Source: a virus
Strand: one strand, 5' to 3'
DNA: 22,408 nucleotides
IMG/VR virus record: IMGVR_UViG_3300035090_000014
Location: 1 to 22,408 of that record
A program made the translations under genes and the position numbers. Every line of letters begins with the position of its first letter. Position 1 is the stretch's first letter. Shown here piece after piece: positions 5,158 through 22,408 of the stretch. Under the pieces are notes generated by a model. The model did not search any database. It was not told where the DNA came from and saw only the letters and a list, made by a program, of their open reading frames with translations.

Positions 5158-7734
5158 TCATTTATTCTGCTGTCCTTGTTGAGCCGCTAATAATTGAGAA
5201 ATTGGAATTTGATTCATATTTTTAGAAACTTGAGGATTAAAAGACTCAAGATATCGTTCAGGAACGTTAGTATTTAAAAGCGCCTTAGTTAAAAGATAAT
5301 TTAAACCCACCGGCCTTATCATATGGCCTATTATTTGAGCAATATTTTTTTTACTAAATATTGAATCCTTGATACTTTTTTCCATTTCTTTAATCGGATC
5401 TTGTGCAGCATTAGTAAATCCAGTCTTAGGAATAAGCATTGGATTAATGTCTGTCGGCGGATACATCCCAGTTGCAGTCCTTAAATCTTCCATTTTTTTA
5501 ACAAAATCTGGAAATTGTTGTCTAAATTGTTCTTTAGTACGAAGCGGTAAATTATCAAATCTTGTAATTACCTGTTGCGGAGTTAATTGAGTTTTGCTAT
5601 TTGCTTCTGTTTGTCCTTTGCTAATTCTATCTAATAGAACTTTAGCTTGTCCTTTCGGAGATAAGGCATTCATTAATCTTCTTGTTAAAGTCGGATTTTC
5701 ATTTTCCTTATTCATTGGAACATAATCTTTAGTAATTCCTTTTGCTTCTCGCTCACCAGTCCCATATTCAAACAATCTTGGATCAAAATTATTTTTTATA
5801 TTATTTATATTTTCAAAAATATCAGGATTGTTTCTTGCTAATATTCTTTGTGTGCCTATTCCCAATCTATCTATATTTTGGAATAATTTTTTAGGATCAA
5901 GGTCATTCATTCCGCGCGTTGCTACCGATAAAGCAACTTTATTTTGACTTTCTGGTGAAATAATAGACATTAATTTATCAGCTAATGTAGTATTTTCATA
6001 TGAACCAGTTTTAAAAAAATCTTTTGCCAATTGTTCAGAAGGACGCTTTTTTAGAGAATGCTCAAAAAGAACTTTATTATCTTGAATAGGTGCTAATTGT
6101 GTCCGCATATAATCATTAGCATCCATATATTGATCTAATAATTTAGAACTAGGATTTTTATTGACATGGTTTATAGCGGCTTTTTTAATATCTTGATCAT
6201 AAGCATTATATAATCCACGATAGGCTTTACCTGCTTTTCTATTCCCAGAGGCATAAGCTTCTTCTGATTTATCCCAATAATATTTCTTTAAAACATTTAC
6301 ATCTTTAAAATCTTGAGCGGGATATTGATCAGGTTGACCTGTAAAAAAATCTTTCGATCTCTTTTGATCTATTATCCTACCTAGATCATCATATAATTGA
6401 GAATCAAATCCGCCTAATGTATGCCTTTCTTTGATAATATCCATATCATCTCGTAATTTTTTTGCTTCTTTAGTAATATTGTCTTGTGTAACCATTGCTC
6501 CTTCATCTTTTGCGGTTTGAGTCATGCTATCATATTTATCATTTTTTATTTTTACTCTTTGTTGCCAGATATTGGATAGTTCATCTTGAACTTCTTCCAA
6601 ATTTTGTCCGCGTGATTCAAGAGGATTTTCCGATTTTCCAGATAAGAATTGTAAATTTCTCATTAATTGTTGTTGAATTGGATCGGAATAATTCTGACCT
6701 ACTTCTTGCGCTATTTCTTCTCTTAAATTGGTAGCTCCTTGTAATCCTTCGCCCTGCGTTCCAAGAGAAGATAAATTTTCATCTAAATTACGTCCAAATG
6801 ATTTACCCATAGCAATCTGAGTTTTAGCCATAGGGGAACCAGGAGAAACAGAAGTTAAAGATTCTGCACCCCCAAGGGCTGGACTTGAAATTATTTTTGC
6901 AGGTGCAGGATTTTTTATTCCAAGAGCATTCAATGCGGAAAGTCTTTCTTGAACTTCTTCTGGTGTAGCGGTTCCCCCACCTTTATTAATGGCTTGTTTT
7001 ATGCCTTGATAAACGTCTGATCCAGATTGAGCTAATGGGCCAAGAGCAGATAGTCCGAGCATTAATGGATTTGTTAATGCTTCTTTACCAGATTCCGAAA
7101 TTGATTTATCACTATAAAATGGAGCAGAAGCTGTTCCAATAGCTATATTTTTTGCATATTGACCTATTGGTTTACCAATATACTTTGATAAAAATCCAGC
7201 AACTTTAGGTAATTGTGCTTCAGAAGCCGATAATAATTCTCCAGCACTTGATTCTGGTGCTGCGACTAAAAATGGGGCAGTTCCCCCCAATAATTGCATT
7301 GATTGAGCTAATGGAGTATTTTCTGTTTCTTTAGGAACAAAATATTGTTTTCCTAAATAACTTTCTGGTATTTGCTCAGGAACACCCTGCAAACCAAATG
7401 CAGATGCTATTTTAGAAGGATGTATACCTAATGACTCTAGTAGTTGCAATTGGACATTACCAATATGACGACCTAAATTTAATGTTCCATATTCAAGATT
7501 ACCCAGTCCGGTTTTTCCTAATAGAGATAATTCATTTATTCTTTCTTGTGGACTTTCTCTATGCATTCCAGAAAGAGTATCTTTAAATGTTTTATGCATA
7601 TTCTGATTATTTTCTTCTTCATCTAATTGCTGAATCATCTGTTTTTGTATTTCAGGAGTCATTGCAGATGATTGGTTTTCTTCATTATCTAATTGAGATA
7701 ACATAGCCTGCTCTTGTGCTTTAGTTAAAGCCAT
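5158..7734 (-). CDS. Large DNA-ejection (internal virion) protein, P22 gp16 position
   Basis: 858 residues; the ATG at 7734 overlaps the upstream stop (TAATG) behind a perfect AGGAGG site. The protein is largely polar and helical, rich in Gln, Lys, Asn and Leu. It opens with two copies of a short helix motif, QAMLSQLDNEEN (9-20) and KQMIQQLDEEENN (31-43). Residues about 135-235 are more hydrophobic and Gly/Ala-rich (LAQSMQLLGGTAPFLVAAP, AIGTASAPFY), which could form the membrane-active part. The C-terminus ends in Gln/Ala-rich sequence. Position directly after two smaller Gln/Ala-rich proteins matches the P22 order gp7-gp20-gp16, whose products leave the capsid ahead of the DNA and form a conduit through the cell envelope. 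Assignment rests on order, size and composition, not on a recognised motif; no lysozyme signature was seen. Confidence 0.65.
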   Translation of the reverse strand: MALTKAQEQAMLSQLDNEENQSSAMTPEIQKQMIQQLDEEENNQNMHKTFKDTLSGMHRESPQERINELSLLGKTGLGNLEYGTLNLGRHIGNVQLQLLESLGIHPSKIASAFGLQGVPEQIPESYLGKQYFVPKETENTPLAQSMQLLGGTAPFLVAAPESSAGELLSASEAQLPKVAGFLSKYIGKPIGQYAKNIAIGTASAPFYSDKSISESGKEALTNPLMLGLSALGPLAQSGSDVYQGIKQAINKGGGTATPEEVQERLSALNALGIKNPAPAKIISSPALGGAESLTSVSPGSPMAKTQIAMGKSFGRNLDENLSSLGTQGEGLQGATNLREEIAQEVGQNYSDPIQQQLMRNLQFLSGKSENPLESRGQNLEEVQDELSNIWQQRVKIKNDKYDSMTQTAKDEGAMVTQDNITKEAKKLRDDMDIIKERHTLGGFDSQLYDDLGRIIDQKRSKDFFTGQPDQYPAQDFKDVNVLKKYYWDKSEEAYASGNRKAGKAYRGLYNAYDQDIKKAAINHVNKNPSSKLLDQYMDANDYMRTQLAPIQDNKVLFEHSLKKRPSEQLAKDFFKTGSYENTTLADKLMSIISPESQNKVALSVATRGMNDLDPKKLFQNIDRLGIGTQRILARNNPDIFENINNIKNNFDPRLFEYGTGEREAKGITKDYVPMNKENENPTLTRRLMNALSPKGQAKVLLDRISKGQTEANSKTQLTPQQVITRFDNLPLRTKEQFRQQFPDFVKKMEDLRTATGMYPPTDINPMLIPKTGFTNAAQDPIKEMEKSIKDSIFSKKNIAQIIGHMIRPVGLNYLLTKALLNTNVPERYLESFNPQVSKNMNQIPISQLLAAQQGQQNK

Positions 7735-9194
7735 TATTGGCCTCCTTCATATTCTACTAAACCACTAGATGTACGCTTATACCATTTACCATCAGGGCCT
7801 TTAATTAATTTTTGACCATTAGCAGACTTCACTTCAAATTGTGTTTTTGGTGCTTGTCCTTCGGGTGCTTTCATTCCCGTACTTTGTGCAAGTTGCTGTG
7901 CCACTGAAGGTTGTTTATCTTCTTGTGCAAACTCTCGCGCTAATTGAGCCTGACTTTTATAACCAGATTTACGGGCAGTATTTGCTTGTTCAATCATCCG
8001 ATTCCATCGGTTCATTGCCATCTGTGGAGTAGCTGCCCAATCATTAGGGTTAAGTAAATCCGTCACAGATTTTATTTCCGCATCGGTTGCTTGTCCTGCC
8101 ATTGTTCTTCTTAATTCATTCGCACTGCCAGGCAAATCAACATGTATAAATTGATCATATTTAAGAAAATCTGGATCGTTCTTAGAGGAACCGACGGCTG
8201 CCAAGGCGCGATCTAATGCGGCTCCCGTTTTCCCATAAGTACCAGAGAATTTAGTAATGGCTGGCATATTAGGCGTAATTTTATCGGTCATGGACTTAAA
8301 CATATCACCGAATAGACGTTGATTTAACTGCGCAGCAGTTGTACCTTCTTTGATTAGTTTTGATCGAATTAAATCAGCGGTATCTTTTGACGCTGCCTGC
8401 TGTTCAGGTGATACTTGTAATCCTAATGAGGCTGGGCTGATTGGCTGCGCTACTGTAGGATTAATTTGTTGAGCCAATGCTGGGCCAACCGCTGATTGCA
8501 TAGGTGATTGAGAAGGAGTTTGAGGCGCAGTAATACCTAATGCAGTCGCTTGAGGTTGGGGTGCATTGGCCAATTGCTGTATACCCTGTGGGCTAATTGT
8601 CATAGGATTTGCGGAAATAGGAGCTTGACCTATAGCCGGTTGACTCGTACTCTGTTGTGCATTAGGCTGAGATAATAAATAACGTTTTGTCATGGAAGCC
8701 GCATAACTAGGAAAATATTCGGCGGGTATCCCAGACTGTAAGAAGCTAGAAAATATACTATCCTTTGCGGTTTGTGGTAATGCATTATAACCGGAGATAT
8801 CCGCATAAGCTTGACGTGAAGCAGTCATGGCTTTCTGTTCAGATAGCTTTGTATTCAATTGATCCATTGCGCCTTTATATTCTTCACTATCTGGCCCATA
8901 AACATCTCTAATTTTCTTTAAATCAGCCTGAGTTTTACCAATATCCGATTGCCACATATCTCCTTTTTGTTGAGCGGCCGCTGCTAATGCATTTTTATAA
9001 TTAATCTCTGCTTCAGTAGACTGTGGATAATATTGATTAGCTAATTGAGTTTTTTGTAGATTAGCTTGATTTATCTGCTGCTGCATTTTCATCTGCTCAG
9101 GCGCATTCAAAGCCTGCATAATTTGACCATAAATACTCAGAGAGTTCTGAATATTTTGAGACATTGGCATATAATTAACTAATGGAAACTGCAT
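7734..9194 (-). CDS. DNA-ejection protein, P22 gp20-like position
   Basis: 486 residues, close to P22 gp20 in size; ATG at 9194 with an AGAGGA site. The first 130 residues are strongly helical and Gln/Ala-rich (MKMQQQINQANLQKTQLANQ, then ALAAAAQQKGD). Residues about 175-270 form a low-complexity Pro/Gln/Ala linker (SQPNAQQSTSQPAIGQAPIS). A more ordered domain at about 270-440 follows and includes KFSGTYGKTGAALDRALAA. The C-terminal 40 residues (GPDGKWYKRTSSGLVEYEGG) resemble a short beta-hairpin tail. The gene lies between the 229- and 858-residue virion proteins, with a 1-nt overlap to the latter. Inferred role: internal capsid protein ejected with DNA. Family membership is by context and composition only. 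Confidence 0.65.
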   Translation of the reverse strand: MQFPLVNYMPMSQNIQNSLSIYGQIMQALNAPEQMKMQQQINQANLQKTQLANQYYPQSTEAEINYKNALAAAAQQKGDMWQSDIGKTQADLKKIRDVYGPDSEEYKGAMDQLNTKLSEQKAMTASRQAYADISGYNALPQTAKDSIFSSFLQSGIPAEYFPSYAASMTKRYLLSQPNAQQSTSQPAIGQAPISANPMTISPQGIQQLANAPQPQATALGITAPQTPSQSPMQSAVGPALAQQINPTVAQPISPASLGLQVSPEQQAASKDTADLIRSKLIKEGTTAAQLNQRLFGDMFKSMTDKITPNMPAITKFSGTYGKTGAALDRALAAVGSSKNDPDFLKYDQFIHVDLPGSANELRRTMAGQATDAEIKSVTDLLNPNDWAATPQMAMNRWNRMIEQANTARKSGYKSQAQLAREFAQEDKQPSVAQQLAQSTGMKAPEGQAPKTQFEVKSANGQKLIKGPDGKWYKRTSSGLVEYEGGQ

Positions 9195-12657: not shown

Positions 12658-13923
12658 TTAGCTCACAAGGGGGAAAGCTAATCTCATGGCATACTCAGGT
12701 ACTAAGGTTTTACCCCAAATCACGTCATGGACTAAACCCATCACGTTTTGAGTAGGAATATTACCGTAATACACACGCATCGAAATACCTGTTTCCTCAT
12801 CAACTTCTTGGCTAGACGGGAATGGATATTGGTCTGGCAAACGCGGCATTGCTAAAAACAATGCATTACCACCTACAATAAAACCCACATTATGCGAAGC
12901 AGTGACAGTGGCAGTTGCACCAACCAAATCGGCTAATGATACGTTAATATTTTTGGCATTATCGCTTGGTTTATCAACACCAGATACTAATGCAGGATAT
13001 ACGCTCACGGTAACAGTACCACCCGAAGAAGCAGCATCCGCCTGGACAGCGACTTGAATTTTTTGACTGGTAGTATTGAATTGCGTGAATTGCAGGAAGA
13101 AAGCGCCAACCGCATTGTTTGGATCAATGGTGATAATATCATAAGCCGCAAAAGCTTTTGATTCAGTACCGCCGGCGCTTGTAAAAGTAAGACTACTTCC
13201 GTCCGCACTAACTGAAGAAATAGTCAATGCTAAAGTAGAAGGATCAATTTCACCGAATGCACCAGAAATATGCTTCGGCATATTGGTGACACGATGCCAA
13301 GAACACTGGGCAAAATCACCGAGCATCCAGCTCTGGGCAATTTCTTCATTTCGTCCCGGGACAAATTGGTTAATACCAGAGTTGATAATGGCAGAAATGA
13401 CAGTATTCGGCAAATAACCGCGAGTAGGATATCCCGGATCACCATAATCTCTCATGCCCTCTAATGCTTGGTCAAGTTGGGCAAAAGAATTAATTGGACT
13501 ACGTCCGTCACCATAACAACGATAAGTATTGGTTTCTGCTAAAGTCGCGACATCCTGAGAAACACGACCGCCAATACGTCTAATAGCGGGCAAACCAATT
13601 CTATCCATATAGGCATCTATATTGAAAATAAATTGTTGTGCATTGCCCTGAATAGGAACGTTGAACGCTTTGTCCACTTTAAGAGATTGAACACGCTGAG
13701 TAATGGGTTCAAAATCAGCAATCAGAGAGTCGCTTCCAACAAATTTCAACGGCTTGTCGAAAGTGACCGTATCGCCAAGTTGGCCGGAAAAATTTTGAAA
13801 ATCATCGAACATCGTGTTCGCTGTAAAAATCAGCGGATTACAGATGTATAAGGGGCCTAGATCAGACTGTTGATAAGTCTGCACATTTTGTAAAAAATTG
13901 TCTGCCGGTAATGATTGTGGCAT
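12658..13923 (-). CDS. Major capsid (coat) protein, P22 coat family
   Basis: 421 residues (P22 coat is 430). ATG 13923 follows a GAGGT site. The body has the HK97-fold pattern of P22-type coats: GDTVTFDKPLKFVG at 50-63, NIDAYMDRIGLP at 101-112, and a spine helix around 120-135 (RVSQDVATLAETN). A Thr/Ser/Ala-rich beta stretch at about 222-345 (SVSADGSSLTFTSAGG, AFAAYDIITIDP) occupies the place of the P22 insertion (I) domain. The strongest family mark is GFIVGGNALFLAMPRLP at 347-363, followed by ISMRVYYG, the P-domain return and MRLAFPLV at the C-terminus. No N-terminal prodomain of the kind removed by a prohead protease is visible. It assembles on the scaffold encoded upstream and is probably among the most expressed genes here. 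Confidence 0.9.
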   Translation of the reverse strand: MPQSLPADNFLQNVQTYQQSDLGPLYICNPLIFTANTMFDDFQNFSGQLGDTVTFDKPLKFVGSDSLIADFEPITQRVQSLKVDKAFNVPIQGNAQQFIFNIDAYMDRIGLPAIRRIGGRVSQDVATLAETNTYRCYGDGRSPINSFAQLDQALEGMRDYGDPGYPTRGYLPNTVISAIINSGINQFVPGRNEEIAQSWMLGDFAQCSWHRVTNMPKHISGAFGEIDPSTLALTISSVSADGSSLTFTSAGGTESKAFAAYDIITIDPNNAVGAFFLQFTQFNTTSQKIQVAVQADAASSGGTVTVSVYPALVSGVDKPSDNAKNINVSLADLVGATATVTASHNVGFIVGGNALFLAMPRLPDQYPFPSSQEVDEETGISMRVYYGNIPTQNVMGLVHDVIWGKTLVPEYAMRLAFPLVS

Positions 13924-15573: not shown

Positions 15574-17868
15574 TTAGCTTTCTTCGATACTTTTCCCTTC
15601 TTCGGTTTCATCTTCTGATCCTCCGTTTTCTCCTTCATTTTTCCCATTACTTTTTTGGGAATCATTTCTTTGTTTTTCATTGATCATTTCTCCAACAGTT
15701 TTAAAAACATTTGCAGCATGTTTTTGCTGCTCCAAAGCATGTTCGCGTTCACTTTCGATCTTGCTATATGCATGTTTATCGAGGGCGATTGCCCCTTCAA
15801 TCAATGTACGCTGACTTTCAGCTTGTGCTTTATTTGCATTAGCGGCGGCTGCCGTTTGCGCTACTAGGATGTCTGATTCTGATTTGGCTTTCATGGCATC
15901 GGCTTTTTCATGATCCGAACGCATTTGAACAGCAGTTTTCATGACCTCTAACCGGCGCTCGGCTTTTTTATCCATTGCATTCATTTCAGCAATCTTCATT
16001 TTATTGACTTCGGGATTAGTCATCATAGCCATTTGCTTTTGCTCTTGTGCCGCTTGTGCCATTTGTTGTTGCTTTTGTTGCCAGAATTTAGCGAATTTCT
16101 CTTTAAGCAAGGAAATATCTTTGACCTCGATATTATCCAAAATAAGCTGAATACCTTCTGGTGTACCAACAAATTCATTAATGGGCGGGCATATCTTCAT
16201 CAGATTAGTAATGGTATCTAGGAATTGAGTGCGCTGTACTTCAAAAGTAGCGTCCATTTTCACTTCAACTTGCAGATCATCAATCTCATATTCCAGTTTA
16301 TACATTGGGTTTTGAATAGAATCATTCACTCTCATGAAAGTGCGATTTCCTTCTTTGTCCATGACAGGAATAGTACGTGCTGTGGTATAATATTTTGGCA
16401 TCAAGTCTACGAATATCTTTAACACTTGATTCATTGATTCCAAAAAATTGACAATATAAGGACGAATAGCATTATTGCTTTGCGTGGCTCCTGCTTGAAT
16501 AGCAGCCCCGCTCATATTGTTTTGCTGACCTTGCTGAGCATCATAGCTGCCCAGAATAGCTTGGATAGTCTGATCACAAATTTCAAAGAAAGAGATTACC
16601 GCCTGGCTGACTTGTCCACGCCCAATGACTTCCGGCGGATTTAAGGGAGCAGTCTGTGCAGGGTTTTGAGTGAATTGATTATAAACTAAAGCTGCATTGG
16701 TTTTTTGAGGATTTAGCCATGCTTGTTGATATTCTTCTTCTTCAGGCAATGCTTCTTTTGGAATTAAGACATCCGTCATACGCATATTTTCAATTTCATT
16801 CACAATATGCTGTAAGCAAACATTCTTCGATTTCTGCATATCCATTGCATAGAAATGGAAAGGAATACACATTTGTATGCCATCTTTCATCCAAATGGAA
16901 TTGCCATCAAAGAAAACACCCGGCAAAAATCGATAGTCTGTTTCTTCTTCTTCTAAGATTTCACTAGCAATAAATTTATAGTTATAGATGGTCGTTTGTT
17001 TCCGTTTAGCTTTCTTAATAATTTGCGGCGGTGCAATCATTGAGCCTTCTACTTCTAACTGAGATACATATTCTTTATATTCTTCACGGGTCCAGGTTTT
17101 CTGCTGATCAGGATGCATGGGATCAGTGGTTAGGTAGAGCATCTTATATTTATATTTCTTTTCATAAAAATCGCATACCATGACAATTTTTTGCTTGGTT
17201 TTTCCATAGCCCTTTGAATAAAACCATGAGAAACCATTGCTAGGGGCTGCACTAAAAGAACTATCTTTGATTTCAATGCCATATTCGTCTTCAACTTCTT
17301 CTTTAGGTTTGGGGTAAAGTTCAAAGTAATATTTTCCGTCACCTTTATGCTTTTCACGAGCCAATACGTCAAAACCAGCTAAGGTATTATCGCGTACCGT
17401 TTCAAATTCCAACATTTGATCAAAGATTTTATCATTTAGATATTTGGTTTTGACTTTGGCAATAGCGAATGATCCCGATAACATATCACTGAATACTTTG
17501 CATTGTTTACTTTTTGTGCTATCCATAATATAACGCATGTGGTTTTCAACCACTTCCGTTTGCGGCGCAAGCTGAGGATCGCCCGCAGCGGGTTGGACGC
17601 TGGGCGCAGGGGTATTTTTAGAGAATTCACCTACTTGATGTGCATGATAAGCATTAATCACATTGGCCTGTACAATAGGACGTTCTAATTCAGTCAGGAC
17701 TGCTGATTCAGAACGATTGAGATTAGAGGCGAAAAGAAAATCTTGAGCTTGACGATATCGGTCATTATTAGGTCTAAACCAATCCATCCAGTCTTCTACC
17801 GCCCGAGTTAAATAGGTTAACCTGGATTCTTTGGTGTTCTCTTCTATATATTGATCAATATCGCTCAA
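15574..17868 (-). CDS. Portal protein, P22 gp1 family
   Basis: 764 residues (P22 portal is 725). The N-terminal helices contain AVEDWMDWFRPNNDRYRQAQ near residue 23, then LERPIVQANVINAYHAHQVG, the usual portal opening. Later blocks match P22-type portals: DYRFLPGVFFDGNSIWM, LQHIVNEIENMRM, then GSYDAQQGQQNNMSGAAIQ and IRPYIVNFLESMNQVLKIF. The C-terminal 150 residues are a long Gln/Ala/Met/Lys helix (FWQQKQQQMAQAAQEQKQMA) equivalent to the P22 barrel, ending in a disordered acidic tail. It forms the dodecameric DNA channel at one vertex. The start codon is TTG at 17868 in a TTGA overlap with the terminase stop. No ATG occurs before residue 28 and the ribosome site is weak, so translation is likely coupled to the terminase. 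Confidence 0.9.
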   Translation of the reverse strand: MSDIDQYIEENTKESRLTYLTRAVEDWMDWFRPNNDRYRQAQDFLFASNLNRSESAVLTELERPIVQANVINAYHAHQVGEFSKNTPAPSVQPAAGDPQLAPQTEVVENHMRYIMDSTKSKQCKVFSDMLSGSFAIAKVKTKYLNDKIFDQMLEFETVRDNTLAGFDVLAREKHKGDGKYYFELYPKPKEEVEDEYGIEIKDSSFSAAPSNGFSWFYSKGYGKTKQKIVMVCDFYEKKYKYKMLYLTTDPMHPDQQKTWTREEYKEYVSQLEVEGSMIAPPQIIKKAKRKQTTIYNYKFIASEILEEEETDYRFLPGVFFDGNSIWMKDGIQMCIPFHFYAMDMQKSKNVCLQHIVNEIENMRMTDVLIPKEALPEEEEYQQAWLNPQKTNAALVYNQFTQNPAQTAPLNPPEVIGRGQVSQAVISFFEICDQTIQAILGSYDAQQGQQNNMSGAAIQAGATQSNNAIRPYIVNFLESMNQVLKIFVDLMPKYYTTARTIPVMDKEGNRTFMRVNDSIQNPMYKLEYEIDDLQVEVKMDATFEVQRTQFLDTITNLMKICPPINEFVGTPEGIQLILDNIEVKDISLLKEKFAKFWQQKQQQMAQAAQEQKQMAMMTNPEVNKMKIAEMNAMDKKAERRLEVMKTAVQMRSDHEKADAMKAKSESDILVAQTAAAANANKAQAESQRTLIEGAIALDKHAYSKIESEREHALEQQKHAANVFKTVGEMINEKQRNDSQKSNGKNEGENGGSEDETEEGKSIEES

Positions 17869-19502
17869 TTTCTTGCTCGCTTAGGAATGGCCTTATAGCC
17901 CTTCGGCACTTGAGATTTAACCAATTGAGAATTGACAAAAGTCAATACAAAATCGGACATTAACCCCATGTTTGCGGCATCCCGCATGGTATCCGCCAAG
18001 TCATCGCGTATATGTGTATCATTTGCAGTAATTTTTGTCAAGTGATTTATGCATAATTCATTTCCATTTGAATCAACTATACCATTCATAATAGTAATGC
18101 GGCCAGTATGCACATAACTTTGACATGCCAGAAAGCCTTCAATTTTATTAGCACGGTGCATCGCTTGCTTAATTTCTTCTTTTAAACCTTTATCAATCGC
18201 GTATTTTCCAGCTATCCGATGGGGAATCGTGTCAATGACCTGAATACCGGGTAACTTCTGTAAGACGGAAAGCAATGTCGTGCCCGTAGATTTTTTCTCA
18301 ATCCCCACTAATTTAGGTTCTACGTGGAACTTTGAGCATTGATAATAGAATTGCATGAACTCATGCTCTAAGTCAGCAGGTTCCACCCATATTTCCCAGG
18401 CGTCCAGCCACACTAAAGCCGTAACACTAGTTTCTTTATTATTTTCTTTAAGCTTATAAAGCCCCCAAAAGCTAAAAGCAGTCGCATCATTGTAGGTTTT
18501 AGAAGTTTCAGCAGTATCTACGGTAATAAAGGTAGAAATAATATTATCTGGAATTGTATCCAATATTCTAATTTTATCGCGTTTAAAGATACCACCACCG
18601 GCTGGCTGAGGGTCTTGTTGATATTGAGCCGAATAGACATATTCATTGATTTCTTTTAATTTCAGCAATTCCTCTTTGGTATGCTTGCTGGGATCAAGCG
18701 CATTACCTGCTGCATCAAGCGCAGGGATAATGAGTCGTTTCCATTGATGCGTATCAAACTTGCCACTCATTAACATGCCGGCTAAATCGCCTTCGTGCAA
18801 TCTTTGACCAATAAAGATAATAGGAGTTTTACGATTGTTTAATCGACTCCGAATCGTCTTATGGAAGTTTTCATTTTGACGATCACGAATAGTATCGCTA
18901 TGCACTTCATTGGGTTTATGAAAGTCATCAATAAAAATGCATCCACCAAATTCATCAGTATGAGACAATCCTGCATGTTTGGAAGTGATAGAGCCTTCTG
19001 AACCATCGGCATATACCATTCCTTTCATATTAGTAATAAAGAATTCTTTACCTCTCGTATGCTGAGAAAGTTCGACACCAAAGATTTGCTGAAATTGCGG
19101 AGATTCAACAATGCATCGCACTTTGGTCGATTGAGTAATAGCGACGCCTGATTGATAGGAAATATATATGAAACGGCTGCGAGGATAGAAGCCAAGTCCA
19201 TAGGCGGTCAACAAAACAGCCCAAGTTGTTTTGCCGTAACTGGGAGGAATATTGACAATCAACCTATCTATTTCATGATGAACGACCTGCATAGCCGTAT
19301 CAGCCAAGATCAATTGATGAGGCTGACGACACATCGGAGTGGAAATTGTGAATTCTTGGTTTTCAAGAATAGGAAAGAAATACTTTTCAAACTCTATGAA
19401 ATTTCGTAAATCTTCTTTATGGGGAAGTTTTTCTCGGGCTGTATAATTAATAGCCTGTATTTTATTTTCTATCCGAGCAATTCTATTGGCATGTCCGCGC
19501 AT
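17865..19502 (-). CDS. Terminase large subunit (packaging ATPase-nuclease)
   Basis: 545 residues from ATG 19502; a TTG at 19538 would add 12 residues, but neither start has a clear ribosome site. The ATPase domain shows a Walker A variant NIPPSYGKTTW (residues about 84-94), Walker B CIFIDDF (188-194), and the coupling motif FIGQRLHEGDLAG (about 230-242). The nuclease domain follows with ITVDTAETS (Asp at 329), the second acidic block VGIEKKSTGTTL, and the C-terminal acidic pair in HIRDDLADTMRDA. The protein pumps DNA into the prohead through the portal and cuts concatemers. No small subunit gene is recognised next to it; a rightward gene occupies the place where P22 has gene 3. Confidence 0.92.
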   Translation of the reverse strand: MRGHANRIARIENKIQAINYTAREKLPHKEDLRNFIEFEKYFFPILENQEFTISTPMCRQPHQLILADTAMQVVHHEIDRLIVNIPPSYGKTTWAVLLTAYGLGFYPRSRFIYISYQSGVAITQSTKVRCIVESPQFQQIFGVELSQHTRGKEFFITNMKGMVYADGSEGSITSKHAGLSHTDEFGGCIFIDDFHKPNEVHSDTIRDRQNENFHKTIRSRLNNRKTPIIFIGQRLHEGDLAGMLMSGKFDTHQWKRLIIPALDAAGNALDPSKHTKEELLKLKEINEYVYSAQYQQDPQPAGGGIFKRDKIRILDTIPDNIISTFITVDTAETSKTYNDATAFSFWGLYKLKENNKETSVTALVWLDAWEIWVEPADLEHEFMQFYYQCSKFHVEPKLVGIEKKSTGTTLLSVLQKLPGIQVIDTIPHRIAGKYAIDKGLKEEIKQAMHRANKIEGFLACQSYVHTGRITIMNGIVDSNGNELCINHLTKITANDTHIRDDLADTMRDAANMGLMSDFVLTFVNSQLVKSQVPKGYKAIPKRARN

Positions 19503-19593
19503 TATGTATAAAATACCATATATTATTGAATAAATCAATCAATACTTAGTATATATAATTTTATTTATCAGCTATTCTATTTTCGTTATTTGT

Positions 19594-19612
19594 ATTAAAA
19601 TTAAATTTTAAT
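19594..19612. promoter_or_regulatory. 19-bp near-perfect palindrome, possible operator
   Basis: ATTAAAATT (19594-19602) and AATTTTAAT (19604-19612) are perfect inverted copies around one central base. The site lies 18 nt upstream of the rightward ATG at 19630 and in the divergent gap with the terminase. Low base complexity means it could be chance; an operator controlling either direction is the alternative. Confidence 0.4.
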
Positions 19613-19629
19613 TCATTAGGAGAGCGTTT

Positions 19630-19995
19630 ATGAAAATGCTAGATATTTATTGTTCAAAATGCGGGGCTATTGAATGTGATTGCGCCAATAAAAAAGCTGA
19701 AGAATATGAGAAAAAATTTATTGATGCAATGAATAATGATTTTAATACTGGAGAGGCACTTAATGTGATAGATCATGTAACAAAAGAGCTTAATCAGATT
19801 AAACAAGAAAAAATGAAAAGAGATAAAGACTGGAAGGAATATTGCAAAAATATGACAATTGAAAAAGCTAAGTTAATATATGAAGAATTAAAAGATGCAC
19901 ATAATAATCCTATTATATATAAACATTTGACTCAAGATCATAAATTAGTATTTGAAATGCTTAAAAAATTAGCTGAAAAATTGAAATGGGACTAG
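19630..19995 (+). CDS. CysRS C-terminal-domain-like small protein with Cys cluster
   Basis: 121 residues, the only complete well-supported gene on the plus strand, with an AGGAG site before ATG 19630. The N-terminus has a compact Cys cluster (CSKCGAIECDC: C8, C11, C16, C18) that could bind zinc. Residues about 24-45, EYEKKFIDAMNNDFNTGEAL, closely resemble the start of the cysteinyl-tRNA synthetase C-terminal (DALR_2) domain, usually 'F.eAMdDDfNTp.Al'. The remainder is Lys/Glu-rich helix (VTKELNQIKQEKMKRDKDWK). There is no catalytic Rossmann fold, HIGH or KMSKS motif, so it is not an aminoacylating enzyme. It is more AT-rich than the structural genes and lies opposite to them, like a moron gene. 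Possible roles are RNA/tRNA binding or interference with host CysRS; both are speculative. Confidence 0.8.
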   Translation: MKMLDIYCSKCGAIECDCANKKAEEYEKKFIDAMNNDFNTGEALNVIDHVTKELNQIKQEKMKRDKDWKEYCKNMTIEKAKLIYEELKDAHNNPIIYKHLTQDHKLVFEMLKKLAEKLKWD

Positions 19996-20150
19996 CTATC
20001 AATATTTCTATTAATGATTTCATTAAATGTTTTGATAATTGTATCTAATTCTATCAAAAATTGAGGTTCTCCATGGATAAATTTATAAAGAATTTTATTA
20101 CATTCAATAATAGTCTGAAATTCATGATTAGTAATAGTAATAGTTTTCAT
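19992..20150 (-). CDS. Small hypothetical protein, 52 aa (MKTITITNHEFQ...)
   Basis: A 52-codon frame from ATG 20150 to TAG at 19994-19992. The product is mixed hydrophobic and charged, with one Cys, reading like a compact helical protein (EFQTIIECNKILYKFIHGEP, then FLIELDTIIKTFNEIINR). There is no good ribosome site, but the coding-like composition and the lack of any other gene in this gap argue for it. It follows the ClpP-like gene on the same strand, and its stop shares the CTAG tetranucleotide with the stop of the convergent rightward gene. No family is recognised. Confidence 0.5.
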   Translation of the reverse strand: MKTITITNHEFQTIIECNKILYKFIHGEPQFLIELDTIIKTFNEIINRNIDS

Positions 20151-20193
20151 TTAATATTTTTCACGTTTATGATATATTGAGACATACATTTCC

Positions 20194-20763
20194 TTAAAGT
20201 GGGTTAAAGTTCCTATATAATCTTTCTTTTAAGGAAGCATCATCGGCATGAATATAAATTTCTTGATCGTTCAACAATAATTTAACTTCTCTTTCCGTAA
20301 GAAATGGAAGATAAATATTATTAAAAATAGATTCATGTATTTTGTCTATATTTTTAACATAGTCCTGTAACGATCTGCCATAGCAGGGCTCAACGCCTTT
20401 AGTGTAATTATGAAAGTACATGCAAGTACTTGGCTCCATAATTAAACACTTTCCAGATAAAGCAATAAAAGTAGCCGCACTACCACATTCACCGGAAACT
20501 ATACAGGTAACATTATAGGTTGATTTTTTAATAGCATTTGCAATTTGATTGCCAATGGATGACTTTCCACCTGGCGAGTCAATATAAATAAAAATATTAC
20601 CTTCTGCTAAATTATTTGGATTGCTATGTAATAATTGTAATAAACCAAAATAGTGATCAATTTTAGATAGTTCACCATGGATATAGACTGCATATCCACT
20701 TATTATTGAATATATACTTAATCGCTTATTCTCTTCTATTTGAGCGAAGTCTCTATAACTCAT
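20194..20763 (-). CDS. ClpP-like serine protease
   Basis: 189 residues from ATG 20763, chosen because it forms an ATGA overlap with the upstream stop and has GGAGGT 10 nt before it; a GTG at 20781 would lie inside that site. The ClpP/crotonase fold is clear: IFIYIDSPGGKSSIGNQIA (57-75; ClpP has 'i.iNSPGG.v..g.aI'), the nucleophile block SGECGSAATFIAL with Ser95, CMYFH with His118, and LLLNDQEIYIHADDA with Asp166. The spacings of 23 and 48 are close to those of E. coli ClpP (25 and 49), so the triad looks intact and the length is near mature ClpP. No ATPase partner gene is seen. Possible roles are degrading host or phage regulators with a host Clp ATPase, or processing virion proteins. Confidence 0.88.
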   Translation of the reverse strand: MSYRDFAQIEENKRLSIYSIISGYAVYIHGELSKIDHYFGLLQLLHSNPNNLAEGNIFIYIDSPGGKSSIGNQIANAIKKSTYNVTCIVSGECGSAATFIALSGKCLIMEPSTCMYFHNYTKGVEPCYGRSLQDYVKNIDKIHESIFNNIYLPFLTEREVKLLLNDQEIYIHADDASLKERLYRNFNPL

Positions 20764-21083
20764 ATCTGATTCCACCTCCACTGATATTCTTTCGGTTTAA
20801 ATGCCTCTAAATATTTCATTTGAACTTCTGCCCATTTACCCTCACATAGGGAACAATTCACTTGATGATATCGGTCAATTAATACGCAAAAAAAAGGAGT
20901 ACACTTTTTTTCCGTTTCTTCGACTTTAATTCCTTCTTTTCTTCTCTTATAAACTGCGTTCGCTTCTTTGGCACATATTTTACATCGAATGCGTAATTTT
21001 CTTCTGCCAGTTTGGTTAATCAGGCGAGCTATCGTTTTTCCATGTCTTTTACAGTCGATGAATATTTCATTGGGTAAAAGCAT
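20760..21083 (-). CDS. Zinc-knuckle protein with two metal sites, 107 aa
   Basis: 107 residues, ATG 21083 in a TAATG overlap with the upstream gene. Eight potential ligands form two groups: C11-x2-H14 with C34-x2-C37 (CKRHG and CKIC), and C61-x4-C66 with C77-x2-C80 (CSLC). Between them is a basic stretch (VYKRRKEGIKVEE). The first group repeats the CKxHG...CxxC layout of the 157-residue neighbour, suggesting common ancestry of the N-terminal module. A DNA- or RNA-binding role is likely but not specific. It ends Trp/Lys-rich (YQWRWNQI) and couples to the ClpP-like gene by ATGA. Confidence 0.75.
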   Translation of the reverse strand: MLLPNEIFIDCKRHGKTIARLINQTGRRKLRIRCKICAKEANAVYKRRKEGIKVEETEKKCTPFFCVLIDRYHQVNCSLCEGKWAEVQMKYLEAFKPKEYQWRWNQI

Positions 21084-21292
21084 TATTTTTTATTAGCTTT
21101 TCCCAAAAATGATATTTCATTATTTGCACCAGTCATTTTATTGTACTCAAGCTGCATTTTGACGCTGGATATCATTTTCCCAGCAATATTAGCTTGTGAG
21201 TTAGCTACTGCTGGCGTAATATCTCCGGAAGCGACGCGCTCTAATTGTTCGGCTAAAAAGTTTCGTAGCTTATCTATGGTTTGAATTGACAT
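21083..21292 (-). CDS. Small phage protein of unknown function, 69 aa
   Basis: 69 residues with a good AGGAG site before ATG 21292; its first 23 nt overlap the end of the preceding gene. The layout IDKLRNFLAEQLERVASGDI, then ANSQANIAGKMISSVKMQLE, is one I have seen in small phage proteins from early regions: two helices with a 'G.it...a......a......s......y' pattern. Its function is not known to me. Its size and helical nature leave open a regulator or a small terminase-like DNA-binding role, but no HTH is evident. Confidence 0.75.
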   Translation of the reverse strand: MSIQTIDKLRNFLAEQLERVASGDITPAVANSQANIAGKMISSVKMQLEYNKMTGANNEISFLGKANKK

Positions 21293-21743
21293 TATTTTTC
21301 TCCTTTAGAAAACGTTTTAATTTGATTAATTCTCTATATGTTTCAATAAACATAGGAGAGAAATCTGATTTCTTTAATATTTCTGAATTCTTCATTAATA
21401 AGTTATTAATATATTTATCAGAAATTTCTGATACTTGTTTTTCATTCCATTTCTTATGACTATATGAAATAATTTCTCGGTTATTAATTCGATATTTTTT
21501 TTGATATAATTTTATTGCATCTTTATTTTTCATCCTATATTCTTTTTTTCTTCTTTTTATAGATTCAATATTTTTCATCCTATATTCTTTAATTTTTTGC
21601 ATTAACTTTTGCGTGTTTTCTTCATAATATTTTTTATTATATTCATCACGACATTCTTTACAATAATAATAATAATTTTTATTTAAAAAAACATCTTCAG
21701 TATATCCATGTATTTTACAATTAGCCGATGGTTTATCTTCCAT
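21270..21743 (-). CDS. Zinc-knuckle protein with five 15-residue repeats, 157 aa
   Basis: 157 residues, ATG 21743 with an AGAGA site, overlapping the upstream gene by 11 nt. The N-terminus has a C9-x2-H12 / C28-x2-C31 knuckle (CKIHG, then CKEC). From residue 37 to 111 five 15-residue units follow, each starting K-[KEW]-[YW] and mostly continuing R-x-x-N-x-x-x-I: KKYYEEN (37), KEYRMKN (52), KEYRMKN (67), KKYRINN (82), KKWNEKQ (97). They would make a long, strongly basic helix. Such knuckle-plus-repeat proteins are common in phages, sometimes joined to endonuclease VII-type nucleases, but no nuclease residues are visible here. Nucleic-acid binding is the likely role. Confidence 0.75.
   Translation of the reverse strand: MEDKPSANCKIHGYTEDVFLNKNYYYYCKECRDEYNKKYYEENTQKLMQKIKEYRMKNIESIKRRKKEYRMKNKDAIKLYQKKYRINNREIISYSHKKWNEKQVSEISDKYINNLLMKNSEILKKSDFSPMFIETYRELIKLKRFLKEKNNVNSNHR
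21525..21590 (-). repeat. 21-bp direct repeat, 45-bp period
   Basis: The same 21 nt occurs at 21525-21545 and 21570-21590, exactly 15 codons apart, encoding KEYRMKN twice. DNA identity shows a recent unit duplication or gene conversion within the repeat array of the 157-residue protein. Confidence 0.8.
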
Positions 21744-22148: not shown

Positions 22149-22259
22149 ATGATAAGATATAAGGCATTAAATAAATGGGGTGGGCGATTGCCAAATACGA
22201 TGGTTAATAGTGCGGTTCCATTTATTGGAGTTGGATCGGCAGGCTCAAGAAATGAATAA
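22149..22259 (+). CDS. Possible leaderless 36-codon frame
   Basis: ATG 22149 to TAA 22259 encodes 36 residues beginning MIRYKALNKWGGRLP. It has no ribosome site and starts where the promoter predicts the transcript to begin, so it could be a leaderless peptide whose stop overlaps the lipoprotein start by 8 nt, or simply untranslated leader. Listed at low confidence. Confidence 0.25.
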   Translation: MIRYKALNKWGGRLPNTMVNSAVPFIGVGSAGSRNE

Positions 22260-22408
22260 AATATTTATTATTGGATTAATGAGTTTCTTATTGATCGGAT
22301 GTAAGGAACAGTCATGTCAGAAAGGCTTTCATAAAGAATGTGAAACTATATGTATGGCAGCAAATAATGTGCCTATTCCAATTCAGAATTGTTCATGCGT
22401 GAAGATCA
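22252..22408 (+). CDS. Small Cys-rich lipoprotein, 3' end beyond window
   Basis: ATG 22252 runs open to the window end (52 codons). The N-terminus MNKIFIIGLMSFLLIGC is a classic lipoprotein signal: a short basic start, a hydrophobic core and a lipobox L-I-G-C with Cys17 as lipid anchor; Lys at +2 is compatible with outer-membrane sorting. The mature part has five more cysteines, C22, C30, C34, C47 and C49, with the C-x3-C ... C-x-C spacing typical of disulfide-knotted helix-plus-hairpin peptides. The ribosome site is weak (AGG). It is transcribed away from the virion genes behind its own strong promoter. Such phage lipoproteins include outer spanins and superinfection-exclusion proteins that block receptors; the sequence does not decide between them. 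Confidence 0.7.
   Translation, partial: MNKIFIIGLMSFLLIGCKEQSCQKGFHKECETICMAANNVPIPIQNCSCVKI

What the first reader, a model, noticed from the sequence alone, without database searches (positions are those of the whole stretch)
19630..19995. Opposite-strand gene with a cysteinyl-tRNA synthetase C-terminal-like segment
KFIDAMNNDFNTGEAL is strikingly like the opening of the CysRS DALR_2 domain, here without any catalytic domain and joined to an N-terminal Cys cluster. A free-standing piece of this domain in a phage, with its own ribosome site and inserted against the direction of the late genes, could be an RNA-binding decoy or a modulator of host translation. Resemblance is from motif memory and covers about 16-20 residues only.
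Basis: partly seen in the sequence, partly recalled or inferred. Interest (0 to 1): 0.6.

Follow-up and report, generated by a model that had tools for sequence, protein, structure and literature searches.

The report
Phage gene with borrowed CysRS hairpin
A small accessory gene in an uncharacterised tailed phage carries a helical hairpin clearly related to part of cysteinyl-tRNA synthetase, without the enzyme around it; it may touch the host's cysteine-tRNA machinery, but no other copy of the gene was found and its function is untested.

Summary
The 121-aa ORF at 19630-19995 (+) matches Pfam DALR_2 at 3.5e-8 (34.3 bits, cut-off 22). A CysRS-built profile scores it 44.4 bits against 15.5 for the best of 200,000 shuffles. 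Profile-profile alignment covers 38 residues (21-58), 34% identical. The match is confined to the first 33 of 57 DALR_2 positions, the F..AM..DFNT..AL hairpin of the CysRS helical bundle. There is no catalytic domain, and residues 59-121 do not resemble the CysRS anticodon-binding domain. The ORF has a strong ribosome site and coding-like base composition. It is the only convincing opposite-strand gene among the structural genes and lies in an island replaced by unrelated genes in an 83%-MCP relative. No other free-standing copy turned up among viral, phage, plasmid or sampled bacterial records. Best reading: a moron-like accessory protein built round a captured CysRS hairpin. Action on CysRS or tRNA-Cys is plausible but not shown; structure prediction was inconclusive. 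It is a singleton, so interest is moderate.

The parts
19630..19995 (+). ORF of 121 aa, the gene described
   Evidence: GC by codon position 0.39/0.20/0.20, consistent with coding
19618..19624 (+). Shine-Dalgarno AGGAGAG, 5 bases before the ATG
   Evidence: sequence printed
19651..19683 (+). Cys cluster CSKCGAIECDC (C-x2-C-x4-C-x-C), possible metal site
   Evidence: translation; no family match to this part and no phage relative
19714..19818 (+). DALR_2 / CysRS helical hairpin, residues 29-63
   Evidence: PF09190 positions 1-33 of 57; hhalign; shuffle control
19819..19992 (+). C-terminal helical part, residues 64-121, unrelated to CysRS by sequence
   Evidence: predicted helices
19510..20760 (.). 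variable accessory island between terL and the conserved 107-aa gene; different genes stand here in the relative L019
19992..20150 (-). 52-aa ORF of the same island, convergent, stop overlapping by 4 bases (CTAG)
   Evidence: no family match
20194..20781 (-). ClpP-like protease gene of the same island
   Evidence: PF00574 2.6e-9; phrog_1827 2.7e-28
17865..19502 (-). terminase large subunit, conserved flank; start MRGHANRI conserved in the relative
   Evidence: phrog_38, 79% identical in L019

Best explanation
The gene is a real, independently translated accessory (moron-type) gene of a tailed phage, carried in a variable island next to terL and inverted against the structural operon. Its protein is a chimera: an N-terminal four-cysteine cluster, a helix-DFNT-helix hairpin descended from the DALR_2 helical bundle of a cellular CysRS, and an unrelated helical C-terminal part. 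Shown: gene anatomy, homology of the hairpin, loss of the rest of CysRS, island variability. Inferred: expression early or from its own promoter, separately from the late genes, and a role in which the hairpin docks onto the host cysteine-charging machinery (CysRS itself, or tRNA-Cys) as a non-catalytic modulator or competitor, similar in spirit to T4's valyl-tRNA synthetase-modifying protein. I put the anatomy and homology at about 0.9 and the docking mechanism at about 0.3.
For: Homology; controls. All four residues invariant within this hairpin across nine CysRS (F30, M34, D37, N39) are kept, plus T40 and N55. Real gene: ribosome site and codon-position GC. Accessory: absent from the relative with 83% identical MCP and 79% identical TerL, whose island of almost equal length (1,248 vs 1,250 bp) holds other genes; GC is low (ORF 0.27 against 0.37 for the window). 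Translation setting: the relative's genome carries RtcB and tRNA-Thr, -Pro and -Leu genes, so this phage group brings its own tRNA functions.
Against: No homologue of the whole protein was found, so there is no comparative support for selection. The kept residues could be those that shape the helix-loop-helix, so they do not show tRNA or CysRS binding. The part of CysRS that reads the anticodon is missing. Fold comparisons did not recover CysRS. No promoter stood out from chance.
Confidence: 0.4

Rival explanations
1. Exapted scaffold: the hairpin does come from CysRS but now serves only as a generic helical module in an accessory protein (for example an anti-defence or regulatory protein with a Cys-cluster metal site) that does not touch tRNA or CysRS.
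For: Only the structural hairpin is kept, while the anticodon-binding domain and the rest of DALR_2 are gone. The island holds unrelated cargo in the relative.
Against: The hairpin motif is kept almost perfectly, more than a free scaffold would seem to need.
Confidence: 0.4
2. Decaying remnant of a phage-carried or captured cysS gene, without function.
For: Singleton; only part of the enzyme remains. Full cysS genes do occur in phage and plasmid records.
Against: Intact frame with a good ribosome site and coding base pattern; N- and C-terminal parts without any CysRS trace, unlike a truncated gene.
Confidence: 0.12
3. Chance or convergent resemblance of a helical phage protein.
For: Short match; no fold confirmation.
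Against: E=3.5e-8 against all Pfam and 29 bits above the best of 200,000 shuffles.
Confidence: 0.06

Closest known systems
Cysteinyl-tRNA synthetase, DALR_2 segment (PF09190 / TIGR00435)
   Same: Residues 21-63 align with the helix-DFNT-helix start of the segment; all residues invariant there are kept
   Different: 121 aa against about 460; no catalytic domain, no KMSKS, no second half of DALR_2, no anticodon-binding domain; new N-terminal Cys cluster and C-terminal helices
T4 Vs, the phage factor that modifies host valyl-tRNA synthetase (Muller and Marchin 1977, cited in PMC8076793)
   Same: Proposed way of working: small phage protein acting on a host aminoacyl-tRNA synthetase
   Different: Different synthetase; no sequence relation known to me (not tested); here no activity has been shown
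Free-standing tRNA-synthetase or amidotransferase domains such as Trbp111 and YqeY/GatB (own knowledge)
   Same: A tRNA-related domain living without its enzyme
   Different: Different domains; those are whole domains with many homologues, this is part of one and a singleton

Membership tests
DALR_2 (PF09190) | score above Pfam's gathering cut-off (22 bits) | tested here: met
   34.3 bits, E=3.5e-8; 34.4 bits from the DNA
DALR_2 (PF09190) | whole 57-position domain present | tested here: not met
   only positions 1-33 align; so homologous to part of DALR_2, not a complete domain
Cysteinyl-tRNA synthetase | catalytic Rossmann domain with KMSKS motif | tested here: not met
   absent from the 121-aa translation; cysS model scores 25.1 against a cut-off of 340
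Cysteinyl-tRNA synthetase | C-terminal anticodon-binding domain | tested here: not met
   residues 59-121 score -0.7 bits, rank 47,843 of 49,980 among shuffles
DALR_2 / CysRS helical bundle | CysRS-like helical-bundle fold | tested here: inconclusive
   models at pLDDT 70 and 80 show helices 17-36 and 41-64 joined at DFNT, but no significant structural match
DALR_2 / CysRS helical bundle | binds tRNA-Cys | not testable with these tools
   needs a binding assay

The most novel reading that the evidence does not exclude
A phage has turned the CysRS hairpin into a free-standing regulator that binds host CysRS or tRNA-Cys to redirect cysteine decoding or to shield tRNA-Cys from anticodon-cutting defences.
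Probability: 0.2. Interest if true: 0.75.

Novelty: new variant of a known kind. Interest (0 to 1): 0.38.

Why it matters
Phages are known to carry tRNAs, whole synthetases and tRNA-repair enzymes. A non-catalytic piece of a synthetase as separate phage cargo would be a different way of acting on host translation and would point to Cys-tRNA charging as a control point in infection. At present it rests on one sequence.

Tried and rejected
Relatives of the whole protein: none in viral contigs, phages or plasmids; hits there were complete or contig-cut CysRS, or short chance matches. In genome contigs the four matches were three CysRS and one spurious regulator match. HCTV-5 gene 154 is not a lead: the match at E about 1 lies on the strand opposite to that gene. 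Short-frame DALR_2 hits in 295 genomes of one phylum looked free-standing, but the eight examined are ordinary CysRS in TGA=Trp organisms; this window uses TGA as a stop in five genes and the ORF is bounded by TAA upstream and ends in TAG, so that explanation does not apply here. Weak hits phrog_14682 (0.009), DrmC (0.004), DUF244 and START are at the level that shuffles reach (0.0017) and were dropped. Foldseek and VIA-align gave nothing significant; CysRS is absent from those lists, which says little. The second model used CysRS rows in its alignment, so its higher confidence is not independent evidence. A KDW triplet in the C-terminal part recalls the CysRS anticodon-binding domain but fails the shuffle test. 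Paper searches found no description of a free-standing DALR_2 piece in phages, within an open-access library.

Full report
The thing itself. The ORF at 19630-19995 (+) encodes 121 aa: MKMLDIYCSKCGAIECDCANKKAEEYEKKFIDAMNNDFNTGEALNVIDHVTKELNQIKQEK..., ending at TAG. AGGAGAG stands five bases before the ATG. Codon-position GC (0.39/0.20/0.20) fits a coding frame, and the other two frames of that strand hold 14 and 23 stops. It runs against the structural genes: ClpP-like protease, terL, portal and major capsid protein are all on the minus strand.

Is the resemblance real? Yes. Pfam DALR_2 gives E=3.5e-8 and 34.3 bits against a cut-off of 22, over residues 29-63 and profile positions 1-33 of 57. 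NCBIfam cysS aligns residues 20-83 with positions 340-402, and among solved structures E. coli CysRS 1li5 is first at 3e-5. Reversal and nine shuffles give no DALR_2 match. A profile built from nine CysRS sequences scores it 44.4 bits; the best of 200,000 shuffles reaches 15.5. hhalign gives probability 95.6 and E=1.1e-8 over 38 columns. Of the columns invariant over nine CysRS in this stretch, all four are kept (F30, M34, D37, N39).

What is missing. There is no catalytic domain. The second half of DALR_2 is not found, and residues 59-121 score below most shuffles against the CysRS C-terminal domain. The Cys cluster at residues 8-18 has no family match and no phage relative. So the protein is a chimera around one hairpin, not a trimmed CysRS. 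In CysRS this hairpin is part of the helical bundle, which PMC4519929 lists apart from the anticodon-binding domain; the assignment of DALR_2 to the bundle is my own knowledge. Calling it an anticodon-binding piece is therefore inexact.

Surroundings. The phage has no close named relative (best TerL matches about 30%). One IMG/VR record of 58,965 bp (G001; locus L019) is a true relative: MCP 83%, TerL 79%, about 72% DNA identity over most of the late region. There, the stretch between terL and the conserved 107-aa gene holds four different ORFs, all in the direction of terL, in almost the same length (1,248 against 1,250 bp), and homology stops close to each edge. DALR_2 is absent from that record, from a second short relative and from ten distant records; several of these are fragments. 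Hence a variable cargo island. The relative also carries RtcB RNA ligase and tRNA-Thr, -Pro and -Leu, so a tRNA-directed function would not be out of place, but that is context and not evidence about this protein.

How rare is it? No free-standing DALR_2 piece was seen elsewhere. Viral-contig pattern scans found complete or contig-cut CysRS and chance matches. Of the phage-record hits, those read in full were CysRS, and one weak hit was antisense to its gene; plasmid hits are annotated cysS or unannotated. Among 295 bacterial genomes, short frames turned out to be CysRS read with the wrong code in the eight examined. These searches are limited: pattern scans need near-exact peptides and not every collection was open.

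Structure. AlphaFold2 gives a mostly helical protein with a break at the DFNT turn, pLDDT 70 alone and 80 with five CysRS rows. Neither model matches any solved structure significantly, nor the first any viral one. This neither supports nor refutes the CysRS fold.

Mechanism. I commit, with modest confidence, to a moron-type accessory protein in which the borrowed hairpin docks on host CysRS or tRNA-Cys. [quoted passage not shown] The main rival, about as likely, is that the hairpin is now only a scaffold. The kept residues probably cap and shape the hairpin (inference) and do not decide between the two.

Verdict. It is an unusual domain arrangement in a singleton gene.

Noticed in passing
L021 (G001:C1:1-19500) 6250-7491 +, and 6177-6249, 8689-8764, 13265-13340: The relative phage encodes an RtcB RNA ligase directly after a tRNA-Thr gene, plus tRNA-Pro and tRNA-Leu: a tRNA-repair and tRNA-supply set.
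   Followed up: partly
window 19510-20760 and L019 3156-4404: Accessory islands of nearly equal length (1,250 and 1,248 bp) with unrelated genes stand at the same place; the first codons of the first island gene overlap the end of the conserved 107-aa gene and are conserved, then homology stops.
   Followed up: partly
window 22225-22407 +: A second possible opposite-strand gene at the window edge: short lipoprotein-like ORF (MNKIFIIGLMSFLLIGCKEQSC...), cut by the window end.
   Followed up: no
window 20194-20781 -: ClpP-like protease gene in the variable island, absent from the same place in the relative.
   Followed up: partly
window 21270-21743 -: 157-aa ORF with very low GC (0.21) and a weak HNH-endonuclease-like match, possibly a recent insertion.
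   Followed up: no
L002/L008 (IMGVR_UViG_3300012093_000008) 2-724: A viral contig begins inside a CysRS gene and continues into phage-like genes: a host/prophage junction at cysS or a contig artefact.
   Followed up: no
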